Assembly: GCA_902772695.1 (NCBI GenBank)
Contig: CACYBL010000104.1
Coordinates: 1 to 35,450 of the forward strand
Origin: an uncultured Elusimicrobium sp.
GTDB taxonomy: Bacteria > Elusimicrobiota > Elusimicrobia > Elusimicrobiales > Elusimicrobiaceae
Reading direction: 5' to 3'
DNA length: 35,450 nucleotides
In this document: positions 27,673 to 33,508 of the stretch, piece by piece
Layout: each line of letters opens with the position of its first letter
Numbering within the stretch: position 1 is the stretch's first letter
Made by a program: the position numbers and the translations under genes
Notes under the pieces: model-generated
The model's database searches: none
Seen by the model: the letters and a program-made list of their open reading frames with translations, nothing else
Told to the model about the DNA's origin: nothing

Positions 27673-27700
27673 ATTCTATGCTTTTATTTTGTAAAAACAA
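27673..27700 (-). promoter_or_regulatory. Promoter of exported-protein gene
   Basis: On the minus strand, TTGTTT (complement of 27695-27700) and TAGAAT (27673-27678) are 16 bases apart, ~50 bases before the start codon at 27623. The AGGTC/GACCT palindrome begins at 27701, immediately against the -35 box. Confidence 0.6.
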
Positions 27701-27763
27701 AGGTCTTTGGACCTAGTTGAAAGGGCCTTTTGGACCTAGTTTTTTTCTAGGTCATTTGGGCCC
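27701..27763. repeat. Palindromic TTTGGACCTA element, operator-like
   Basis: Two direct copies of the core (27701-27716 and 27723-27739) are followed by an inverted copy (27747-27763). GACCTAG (27733-27739) pairs with CTAGGTC (27747-27753) around T7, and GGGCC (27723-27727) pairs with GGCCC (27759-27763). The first copy is itself a small palindrome, AGGTC...GACCT. The same element recurs at 32345-32383 beside another secreted-protein promoter. Confidence 0.65.
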
Positions 27764-31656: not shown

Positions 31657-32259
31657 TTATAAAAGTGTTACCGCATTCAACATTTCTATAAATTTCGGGG
31701 TTTCTTCTCCACAGTTTTCTCGGCGCAACGAAGAATCCACCTCAAACCCGGATAAGGCCCGTCCACTTAATGAGGGTGGTAGAACCGCAGATAACACCGT
31801 GGTATTCGGTTTTAAATAATTCAAGACGAAATGCGCTTGTCCGCCTTTTTCAAAGTAAAACGTCGTGTAATCGCCATGATTCGTAATTATATATCCAGCA
31901 TTGTATACGTTGTACTTCGCACGTAGATCTTTTTCTTGGTCCCCTTCGTAGACACGTACAGTCACATATTCCGGAAGATCTTTATAATCTTCTGCCTTGG
32001 CACCTTCGCACAACCATATCTTTCCTTTTTGGTAAACATAAAACCAAAAAGCCGGTGATTCCTCTTGCGCAGGGACAAAACGGGTATACACATTGTCGTA
32101 TACTACATCTGCGGAGTCGCCCCCGCCGAAATATTCCACATAAGCTATTGCAGCAGCCTGACACTCATCGGTATTTCTTGTTTCCGTGGCAAACGAGAGC
32201 GAAGCCACCAAGCACAATCCCAACACTATCAGTATTCTCTTAACTGATCCTTTTTTCAT
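31657..32259 (-). CDS. Secreted protein of unknown function
   Basis: From ATG 32259 (AAGGAG eight bases upstream) the product is 200 residues with a Sec signal peptide (IVLGLCLVASLSFA, cleavage near residue 24). An in-frame start at 32289 would put ten unrelated residues before the signal peptide. The mature region is acidic and rich in Tyr and beta-strand patterns (VVYDNVYTRFVPA, FWFYVYQKGKIWLC, TTFYFEKGGQAHFVLNYL), with three cysteines (DEC, WLC, ENC). No family is recognised. It shares with the 26844-27623 gene a Sec signal, a single-gene transcript, a strong terminator and the palindromic promoter element, so the two may be co-regulated. Confidence 0.8.
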   Translation of the reverse strand: MKKGSVKRILIVLGLCLVASLSFATETRNTDECQAAAIAYVEYFGGGDSADVVYDNVYTRFVPAQEESPAFWFYVYQKGKIWLCEGAKAEDYKDLPEYVTVRVYEGDQEKDLRAKYNVYNAGYIITNHGDYTTFYFEKGGQAHFVLNYLKPNTTVLSAVLPPSLSGRALSGFEVDSSLRRENCGEETPKFIEMLNAVTLL

Positions 32260-32314: not shown

Positions 32315-32344
32315 ATTGTAAAGCTTATCCCCTCCTATGCGCAA
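32315..32344 (-). promoter_or_regulatory. Promoter of secreted-protein gene
   Basis: On the minus strand, TTGCGC (complement of 32339-32344) and TACAAT (32315-32320) are 18 bases apart, ~55 bases before the start codon at 32259. The palindromic element begins at 32345, directly against the -35 box. Confidence 0.6.
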
Positions 32345-32383
32345 GGGCCTTTGGACCTACCTTCATCTAGGTCTTATGCCCCT
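32345..32383. repeat. Palindromic TTTGGACCTA element, second copy
   Basis: Direct core GGGCCTTTGGACCTA (32345-32359) and inverted core TAGGTCTTATGCCCC (32368-32382) face each other; GACCTA (32354-32359) pairs with TAGGTC (32368-32373). The first half matches 27701-27716 at 13 of 16 positions and has the same distance to its -35 box. The second half abuts a possible plus-strand -35 box. Confidence 0.65.
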
Positions 32384-32411
32384 AGTTTTTCATGCCTTCT
32401 CCCCTTATTCT
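32383..32411 (+). promoter_or_regulatory. Possible divergent promoter with leaderless geometry
   Basis: TAGTTT (32383-32388), a 17-base spacer and TATTCT (32406-32411) read towards the short exported ORF whose second ATG is at 32418, six bases after the -10 box. Neither box is perfect; the case rests on the geometry and on the symmetry with the minus-strand promoter. Confidence 0.4.
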
Positions 32412-32417
32412 ATGAAT

Positions 32418-32636
32418 ATGAAAATATTTAAACGGATATTACTAACTTTATTATTGGGTTTGTATACCACGATAACATTTGCCCAAGGACAACTCGCCCA
32501 GGTGCCGCAGGCCATCCGGAGCGTCGGTCCGGCTTCCCACCAAGCGTGGTACTACTGGCGGGACGTGTACGAATTTTCTGCCGTACTTTTTCCAAATCTG
32601 TTAAAAACAAACTTTTTCTGCCATATACAAGTATAA
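32418..32636 (+). CDS. Short exported ORF, possibly a truncated secreted gene
   Basis: From ATG 32418 the product is 72 residues; ATG 32412 would add two. It has a textbook signal peptide (MKIFKRILLTLLLGLYTTIT, cleavage after TFA, leaving QGQLAQVP). The remaining ~48 residues (SHQAWYYWRDVYEFSAVLFP) are Trp/Tyr-rich and match nothing I know. The 32490-32580 stretch is clearly more GC-rich than its surroundings, which suggests a transferred or rearranged fragment. I therefore think it is either a small secreted peptide or the 5' end of a decayed secreted protein; there is no open frame linking it with the SUFU gene 113 bases downstream. Confidence 0.4.
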   Translation: MKIFKRILLTLLLGLYTTITFAQGQLAQVPQAIRSVGPASHQAWYYWRDVYEFSAVLFPNLLKTNFFCHIQV

Positions 32637-32749
32637 CTTTCGTCGATAGTTTCTTTAGCGAAAATGTTACAATGCAGATATATTTAATTCTAAATGCGGA
32701 TTAGATTGTTTTTAAATTTACTTCTTATAGGAGGAAACAATAACTTATC

Positions 32750-33319
32750 ATGGAACCATTAAAAAGAATTTGCCGGGACGTTGTGGATGTTTTTCAAGGG
32801 AAAAAACCCGCTGTGCATCGTTATTGGGATGATAAGAATGTAAAACACATTGACATTTTGTCCTGTGAGGACTCTCCTACCCAGGGTATCGTCTCTTATG
32901 CAACGTTGGGATTATCACAGATAGATTTCGGTTGGACTTCCCAGCAGAAGAGCTTGCGGACGGAACTTATCGGAACGTGTTGTTCGGAAACGACGTATTT
33001 CCCCCAAATACTTTCTGCCGCCGCTTTTGAAATTATGAACTCCGGTGCAGGTGTACCCGGGGCAGTGTTACGAAATATTATCTCTTTGTATGTCCCCGAA
33101 ACAACCACACCCCATTTATTTCTGACTATGCCCTCTATGTGGCAAAAGGAACTTTTACCCATCTCGTTCGATGATATCATGGTTGATTTTCTAATGGTTG
33201 TGCCCATTTCCGATACTGAATGGCGATTCTTAAATCAGCAAGGTGAGGAGGCGTTGGAATCATTATTGGAAGAAAAACAAGTTCATATACACGATTTTTT
33301 CCGCAAGCCAATTTGCTAA
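32750..33319 (+). CDS. Suppressor-of-fused (SUFU) domain protein
   Basis: This 189-residue cytoplasmic protein has the bacterial SUFU pattern: HIDILSCEDSPTQGIVSYATLGLSQ-like start (residues ~30-60), RTELIGTCC (~68), then DFLMVVPISDTEWRFLNQQG (near residue 147) and LLEEKQVHIHDFFRKPI at the end. Bacillus YqcF, of this family, is an antitoxin for an LXG toxin, and SUFU proteins are often immunity proteins in polymorphic toxin loci. No toxin is recognisable here; the short exported ORF upstream is not one by sequence. AGGAGG precedes ATG 32750 with a long 15-base spacing. An orphan immunity protein is one reading, but this is inference. Confidence 0.8.
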   Translation: MEPLKRICRDVVDVFQGKKPAVHRYWDDKNVKHIDILSCEDSPTQGIVSYATLGLSQIDFGWTSQQKSLRTELIGTCCSETTYFPQILSAAAFEIMNSGAGVPGAVLRNIISLYVPETTTPHLFLTMPSMWQKELLPISFDDIMVDFLMVVPISDTEWRFLNQQGEEALESLLEEKQVHIHDFFRKPIC

Positions 33320-33508
33320 TCAAACCTAAACTCTAAATCTGCCACCCAAACGCCCGGGCCAAGTTTGTTCCCCCAGCTCCTCTATCATGCATACTGGCTT
33401 TGTACTCATGACCTATTGGACATTCCCACTATGCTTTTTATTGCCGGCAGGTTCAAGTTTCTACAGCGCAGATAACGCGTGGGCTTCAAACCTAACCATT
33501 AATTACAG

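What the first reader, a model, noticed from the sequence alone, without database searches (positions are those of the whole stretch)
32315..32418. Same element as a shared operator between two divergent promoters
At 32345-32383 the direct half abuts the minus-strand -35 box (32339-32344) and the inverted half abuts a possible plus-strand -35 box (32383-32388) that is 17 bases from TATTCT. The two transcripts encode a secreted protein and a short exported ORF. The symmetry suggests one regulator controls both directions.
Basis: partly seen in the sequence, partly recalled or inferred. Interest (0 to 1): 0.5.

Follow-up and report, generated by a model that had tools for sequence, protein, structure and literature searches.

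The report
Shared promoter switch for exported proteins
The palindrome is one copy of a promoter control site that recurs across the bacterial class Elusimicrobia, sits at a fixed distance from the transcription start of genes for exported proteins, and is probably bound by one conserved two-component response regulator.

Summary
The palindrome is real and placed as described: 32342-32359 (minus, abutting -35 TTGCGC) and 32368-32383. It is one copy of a dispersed cis element. Its half-site (<=1 mismatch) occurs 394 times in 79 genomes of the window's family versus 0 for the reversed pattern, and in 132 of 189 class genomes but 1 of 105 outside. Over 125 sites the grammar is RGRCCTA-N8/9-TAGGTCYAAAGRCCCTTG(-35)-N17-TATAAT; 101/125 have the -10 in place. 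Downstream ORFs look exported in 89/115 cases versus 62/180 background; ATG at the predicted +1 (25/125) suggests a leaderless subset. The proximal box is centred at -42.5, as for a class II activator. Best candidate regulator: a NarL/FixJ response regulator (166/189 class genomes, 0/105 outside) that keeps DosR's base-contacting residues and lies beside a dCache sensor kinase. That link is inferred. The distal half is generally not a second promoter. Here the plus side has a -10 at the canonical offset and ATG at +1, but scores weakly, is not conserved, and its ORF runs into another repeat. One regulator is likely; symmetric two-way control is only possible.

The parts
32342..32359 (-). Proximal box TAGGTCCAAAGGCCCTTG of the minus-strand promoter (about -50 to -33, counting from the idealised 17-nt spacer); full match to the class-wide consensus TAGGTCYAAAGRCCCTTG
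   Evidence: rank 1 of the window in the matrix scan
32360..32367 (.). 8-nt unconserved gap between the two boxes (gap 8 in 31 and gap 9 in 40 of 125 sites)
32368..32374 (-). Distal box core AGACCTA (consensus RGRCCTA) of the minus-strand promoter
   Evidence: kept in both orthologous promoters
32339..32344 (-). -35 hexamer TTGCGC, overlapping the last three bases of the proximal box
32315..32320 (-). -10 hexamer TACAAT, spacer 18
31657..32259 (-). Gene for a 200-aa exported protein of unknown family (MKKGSVKRILIVLGLCLVASLSFA...), the main target; start codon at 32259 behind AAGGAG
   Evidence: no Pfam or NCBIfam match; orthologues in 2 of 60 other genus genomes searched, G030 and G031, both with the element
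32368..32385 (+). Possible plus-direction box TAGGTCTTATGCCCCTAG (degenerate)
   Evidence: 7 of 11 extension positions; 10.9 bits, rank 3 in window
32383..32388 (+). Plus-strand -35-like TAGTTT (2 of 6 to TTGACA)
32406..32411 (+). Plus-strand -10-like TATTCT at the canonical offset of 38 from the T of TAGG
32418..32636 (+). Short ORF (72 aa), ATG exactly at the predicted +1 (leaderless reading), signal-peptide-like N-terminus; 3' half is repeat-derived, so probably a truncated gene
   Evidence: no Pfam match
27698..27738 (-). Second copy of the element in the window: two proximal-type boxes in tandem, TAGGTCCAAAGACCTTTG (27698-27715, next to the -35) and one starting at 27738; -10 TAGAAT at 27673-27678
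   Evidence: rank 2, 23.4 bits
26844..27623 (-). 259-aa exported protein of unknown family downstream of the 27698-27738 copy

Best explanation
The element is the binding site of one transcription activator that switches on genes for exported proteins in Elusimicrobia. On the promoter strand it reads RGRCCTA-N8/9-TAGGTCYAAAGRCCCTTG. The last TTG is the -35 box and a good -10 (TATAAT-like) follows 17 bases later, while the rest of the -35 hexamer is not conserved. A dimer on the proximal box (14-bp dyad, centre -42.5) would touch RNA polymerase in the class II manner, helped by a second dimer on the distal box. The most likely activator is a NarL/FixJ-family response regulator ('RR-A', G000:C30:5523-6209 minus), phosphorylated by the dCache-HAMP sensor kinase encoded next to it. 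In this window the element mainly drives the minus-strand secreted-protein gene; a weak leaderless transcript to the right is possible. Shown by computation: recurrence, fixed promoter position, exported targets, taxonomic range, co-distribution with RR-A. Inferred: activation rather than repression, identity of the regulator, signal sensed, any transcript at all.
For: Recurrence with a reversed-pattern control: 13 sites versus 0 in the own genome at <=3 mismatches; 394 versus 0 in 79 family genomes, and 39 versus 5 and 41 versus 6 in families f2 and f7, at <=1 mismatch; all 27 stretches that match the full gapped palindrome exactly in the named genome collection are Elusimicrobia, Elusimicrobiales, Elusimicrobiaceae or Elusimicrobium records. 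Fixed promoter position: -10 hexamer at offset 38 in 78 and 39 in 21 of 125 sites, background about 5 per position; a -10 at 37-39 in 89 of 99 sites that I grouped as own family and 12 of 26 others. Exported targets: 89/115 versus 62/180 (Fisher 3e-13); stricter rule 78/115 versus 45/180 (3.6e-13). Independent genome G128: 10 sites versus 0 control at <=2 mismatches, 9/10 with the -10, 10/10 followed by an exported or pilin-like protein by eye. Orthologues of the window gene keep the element. RR-A: 166 of 189 class genomes, 0 of 105 outside; 61-90% identical to the first of 15 aligned members. Its recognition helix KT(V/I)KN matches DevR/DosR KTVKN in the alignment; Lys179, Lys182, Asn183 are DosR's base-contacting residues (PMC4082495 and PMC5861037, passages). 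The box resembles the OsdR consensus AGGGCCGATCGGCCCT (PMC5069765, passages), and DevR sites overlap -35 (PMC3029386, passages). In G173, with 6 sites, the only two GerE proteins are both RR-A-type.
Against: No binding or expression data. RR-A shares its range with most of the class, so any class-wide regulator would co-distribute as well; within the class 9 of 23 RR-A-negative genomes still have a site (mostly single sites; 123 of 166 positives do). The RR-A-positive genomes of g14, g15 and g16 (one each) have 0 sites at <=1 mismatch. In G229 only 1 of 6 sites has a -10 and several look like tandem repeats; in G191, G240 and G234 together 1 of 9 has one. A second GerE regulator (RR-B, NTVHVH helix) is present in family f1, where sites are densest. 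RR-A's closest solved sequence is VraR; DevR comes after it. The RR-A operon carries no good copy of the element. The 125 sites are not an independent sample: orthologues were not removed and some came from similarity to the window.
Confidence: 0.62

Rival explanations
1. Same operator and regulon, but the protein that binds it is another regulator (RR-B or a non-GerE factor), or it represses by covering the -35 box.
For: RR-B is present with RR-A in family f1, where sites are most abundant. The site overlaps -35, which also suits a repressor. No autoregulatory site at RR-A.
Against: Promoter-type sites occur in f7 genome G173, whose only two GerE proteins are RR-A-type. RR-B lacks the DosR K-K-N residues. 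The -35 hexamer is reduced to TTG in the 125-site profile, which argues for an activator.
Confidence: 0.27
2. One reading: a symmetric operator between two promoters, each half serving its own direction.
For: In this window the plus side has -10 at offset 38, ATG at offset 50 and a signal-peptide-like ORF. L019 has two complete halves. DevR itself regulates the divergent tgs1-Rv3131 promoters through two sites (PMC3029386, passage).
Against: No mirrored -10 peak over 71 distal sides. Only 4 of 70 distal sides score 8 or more of 11 in the extension, against 125 of 125 proximal sides, which were selected for it. The plus ORF is not conserved and is partly repeat-derived.
Confidence: 0.3
3. A mobile or selfish dispersed palindrome (MITE, REP-like) that happens to carry promoter parts.
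For: Dispersed copies at unrelated loci; some tandem copies (window 27698-27738; G229).
Against: Only about 40 bp are shared, the inner gap varies (8 or 9), and the -10 lies at a fixed distance with unconserved bases between.
Confidence: 0.05
4. An RNA hairpin (terminator or attenuator) or a DNA-uptake word.
For: The strand can fold into a hairpin (z -1.48), and T-runs follow some copies.
Against: The element lies upstream of the -10 it accompanies; one search finds no terminator there; at most 21 copies per genome at <=1 mismatch, placed at -35 boxes.
Confidence: 0.03

Closest known systems
DosR/DevR dormancy regulon of Mycobacterium tuberculosis and OsdR of Streptomyces
   Same: NarL-subfamily response regulator; base-contacting Lys, Lys, Asn in the recognition helix; GGG/GGC-rich dyad of the same register; proximal site overlapping -35 with a second cooperating site upstream
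   Different: Different sensor (dCache-HAMP kinase instead of the heme sensors DosS/DosT); targets are exported orphan proteins, not a hypoxia set; distal box reduced to its inner core; no autoregulatory site; RR-A is below the cut-off of every NCBIfam equivalog shown
Class II activator-dependent sigma-70 promoters (for example CRP at -41.5, recalled)
   Same: Dyad centred at -42.5, poor -35 hexamer, good -10 at 17 bp
   Different: Different protein family and a conserved second box 24-25 bp upstream
VraR/LiaR-type cell-envelope response regulators
   Same: RR-A's best sequence match among solved structures is VraR; envelope-related output (recalled)
   Different: VraR has KTVKTH where RR-A and DosR have KT(V/I)KN; kinase architecture of VraS not compared

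Membership tests
DosR/DevR orthologue group | Receiver plus GerE (LuxR-type) domain, about 215-230 aa | tested here: met
   Pfam PF00072 and PF00196 in L225:4351-5034
DosR/DevR orthologue group | Lys179, Lys182, Asn183 equivalents | tested here: met
   K187/N188 invariant in 15 of 15 of A3 and K184 in at least 90%; 43 of 44 helices matched by a regular expression read KTxKN, one reads NTVKN
DosR/DevR orthologue group | Partner kinase of DosS/DosT type (GAF/heme) | tested here: not met
   Adjacent kinase has dCache, HAMP, HisKA, HATPase_c
DosR/DevR orthologue group | Closest relative of DosR among characterised regulators | tested here: not met
   VraR scores higher than DevR; MadR, MctR and NarL are the nearest NCBIfam models, all far below cut-off
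DosR/DevR orthologue group | Binds the GGGACTTTAGTCCC-type box | not testable with these tools
   Only resemblance of the predicted site; DevR box letters recalled, OsdR consensus from PMC5069765
Class II activator-dependent promoter | Activator site centred near -42 and overlapping -35 | tested here: met
   Sequence position over 125 sites; +1 itself is predicted
Class II activator-dependent promoter | Weak -35, intact -10 | tested here: met
   only TTG conserved at -35; -10 profile T.62 A.69 x A.62 A.46 T.74
Class II activator-dependent promoter | Transcription depends on the activator | not testable with these tools
   No expression data
Operator shared by divergent promoters | Both sides carry a promoter in register | tested here: inconclusive
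   Met in form in this window, not in the set of 71 distal sides
MITE/REP dispersed repeat | Sequence identity of copies across the whole unit, independent of promoters | tested here: not met

The most novel reading that the evidence does not exclude
A single DosR-like phosphorelay sets the secretome of the class Elusimicrobia: one fixed promoter grammar marks many fast-evolving, family-less exported proteins per genome, about a fifth of them on leaderless mRNAs that start at the AUG, together with a few structured small RNAs and small proteins, and new exported genes join the regulon by acquiring this promoter.
Probability: 0.35. Interest if true: 0.8.

Novelty: new variant of a known kind. 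Interest (0 to 1): 0.6.

Why it matters
The searches listed in the full report found no regulatory code described for Elusimicrobiota. A sequence rule that predicts promoter, start site (including leaderless starts) and export of otherwise unclassifiable proteins would let one read the secretome, and hence much of the interaction with gut hosts and other microbes, from MAGs alone. It also names one regulator and one sensor kinase to test.

Tried and rejected
Terminator or attenuator: rejected by position relative to the -10 and. Mobile repeat and DNA-uptake word: rejected by fixed -10 spacing and low copy number. RemA/DUF370 as regulator, prompted by two sites in front of gmk: the ORF between is a 30-aa peptide, not DUF370. 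MetJ-like 8-bp box array: the boxes fit an 8-bp register when the gap is 8, but gap 9 is more common, so dropped without a family search. Autoregulation of RR-A: no good site in the RR-A loci scanned. A homologue of the plus ORF as the divergent gene of G030: no significant similarity. An attC-like reading of the second repeat: the single-strand fold is not clearly better than shuffles (z 0.37 and -0.72), left open. The signal-peptide rule is a home-made hydropathy rule and my ORF picker chose wrong starts at several sites (for example L062, L072, L075; compare), which lowers the counts.

Full report
What was claimed and what is there. The own genome is G000 (1.23 Mb, 147 contigs, 89% complete), a member of family f1. 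Named hits of the full gapped pattern are all labelled Elusimicrobia, Elusimicrobiales, Elusimicrobiaceae or Elusimicrobium (27 of 27 stretches), which places the window in that class.

The element recurs. A 281-base query found the palindrome, and nothing else of the query, at a second place in the own genome, and many further matches in relatives cover the same 40 bases at unrelated loci. As a pattern with <=3 mismatches it has 13 places in the own genome and 0 for the pattern read backwards. In 294 genomes of the phylum, <=1 mismatch, it is found in 133. From the table, retyped: 394 sites versus 0 controls in 79 genomes of f1; 39 versus 5 in 46 of f2; 41 versus 6 in 34 of f7; 0 versus 1 in 6 of f4. 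132 of 189 class genomes and 1 of 105 genomes outside the class have a site.

Promoter grammar. I collected 125 distinct sites (<=1 mismatch) from the loci on hand; this sample includes orthologues and sites found by similarity to the window. Read towards the gene: RGRCCTA at gap 8 (31 sites) or 9 (40 sites), then TAGGTCYAAAGRCCCTTG; 39 of 125 have no distal core at >=6/7, and 15 have one at other gaps. Shuffled upstream sequence gives 0 and 2 at gaps 8 and 9. A -10 hexamer starts 38 bases after the T of TAGG in 78 of 125 and 39 bases after in 21, against about 5 per position elsewhere; 101 of 125 have one at 37-39. This puts TTG at -35 and the centre of the 14-bp dyad GGGYCTTTRGACCT at -42.5. 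Beyond TTG the -35 hexamer is not conserved.

One-sided, not two-sided. On 71 distal sides the mirrored position has a -10 in 4 cases at offset 38, no peak, and the outer arm is mostly lost, although 12 of 70 keep 7 or more of 11 extension bases where shuffling gives about 1. So there is some outer symmetry, but the usual output is one promoter. In this window the plus side has TATTCT at offset 38 and ATG at offset 50. It is the third-best position of the window (10.9 bits), but below 98% of the training sites.

Targets. 89 of 115 downstream ORFs look exported by a simple hydropathy rule versus 62 of 180 other ORFs; with a stricter rule 78 of 115 versus 45 of 180. 10 of 125 sites had no ORF by my rule. 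Among the 89 exported-looking proteins no Pfam family matches more than 5 (ankyrin repeats lead). The window gene itself has no Pfam or NCBIfam match and orthologues in 2 of 60 other genus genomes searched (63% and 56% identity), both with the element and a -10. ATG is enriched at offsets 50 and 51 (17 and 8 of 125; most neighbouring offsets 0-5), the predicted +1, usually opening an exported ORF: a leaderless subset.

An independent genome. In G128, not used to define the pattern, there are 10 sites at <=2 mismatches versus 0 control; 9 of 10 have the -10 at 37-39 and all 10 are followed within 300 bases by an ORF that looks exported or pilin-like by eye.

Outside the family. In f7, G173 (6 sites, 4 with -10), G274 (4, 4) and G169 (3, 3) follow the grammar, and these sites precede exported-looking proteins by eye. 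G229 (6, 1), G286 (4, 1), G191 (3, 0), G240 (3, 0) and G234 (3, 1) mostly do not show the -10.

Candidate regulator. The dyad resembles DosR/DevR sites (recalled consensus GGGACTTTAGTCCC) and the published OsdR consensus AGGGCCGATCGGCCCT (PMC5069765, passages). I therefore searched GerE proteins in 24 genomes: all 18 class genomes have 1-7, of 6 others only 2 have any, one marginal. One group, RR-A, is shared by f1, f2, f5 and f7 (61-90% identity to the first member in an alignment of 15). At E <= 1e-50 it is found in 166 of 294 phylum genomes, all in the class; 23 class genomes lack it at that threshold. Its recognition helix KT(V/I)KN aligns to DevR KTVKN, which holds the three base-contacting residues of DosR (PMC4082495 and PMC5861037, passages). 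VraR, its best match, has KTVKT. RR-A lies next to a dCache-HAMP histidine kinase, a receiver-kinase hybrid and a TadE-like gene. PMC3029386 (passages) reports -35 overlap of the proximal DevR site, cooperative second sites and a divergent DevR-controlled pair.

What this does not show. Co-distribution at class level is weak evidence for one regulator among many class-wide ones; RR-B is a live rival in f1. The single genomes of g14, g15 and g16 have RR-A but no site at <=1 mismatch, and the g14 protein has N for the first lysine. No transcript, binding or phosphorylation has been tested.

The plus ORF. Residues 38-72 of the 72-aa ORF match a dispersed stretch at unrelated places of the genus; its core occurs once each in 8 of 61 genomes. 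The N-terminal part has no convincing relative. G030 has an unrelated 295-aa exported protein on that side, G031 none. The gene is most likely a remnant.

Literature. Searches (PMC open-licence full text; listings only) gave no paper whose listing describes this element, a secretome regulon or a DosR-like regulator in Elusimicrobia. Most subscription papers are not held, and I did not see the E. minutum genome paper.

Noticed in passing
window 32525-32660, with a possible second 3' end near 33446-33476: A second dispersed sequence of about 110 bp (CTGCGCCCACCAAGCG...GTACGAATTTTCTGCC...GTTCAAGTTTCTCTAGCGCAG) with short terminal inverted repeats; the core occurs once each in 8 of 61 genomes at different loci. 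It forms the 3' half of the plus ORF and may flank the SUFU-domain gene 32750-33319. Recombination site or cassette boundary not tested further.
   Followed up: partly
L063 (second site) and L101, downstream of the element: Instead of a protein, a short RNA-like sequence follows: unpaired CATCC, then a GC-rich hairpin and T-rich tail, similar in two loci. Possible small RNA of the regulon.
   Followed up: no
L055 and L155, downstream of the element: A similar multi-hairpin sequence with CATCCA and TATCCAGGGA motifs and a terminator-like end follows the element in two loci; possible structured small RNA.
   Followed up: no
L025 and L115: The element precedes a conserved 30-aa ORF (M(S/Q)L(T/S)ADNFLIMS(I/M)EFIAVSTQG...) upstream of a gmk-like gene in two genomes; possible leader peptide.
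   Followed up: no
L087, L113, L167: The element precedes a conserved 50-54-aa protein without signal peptide (NL(R/K)FxLALGN(T/A)K).
   Followed up: no
L217 (G193): The RR-A of the single g14 genome has SINTVKNH, N for the first DosR-type lysine, and that genome has no site at <=1 mismatch; a single case of possible co-change.
   Followed up: no
G229 loci L157, L265: Sites in tandem or upstream of a tRNA-like sequence without a -10; the half-site may have another role in this lineage.
   Followed up: partly
window 32750-33319: Protein with a SUFU (suppressor of fused) domain, E 2.3e-24.
   Followed up: no
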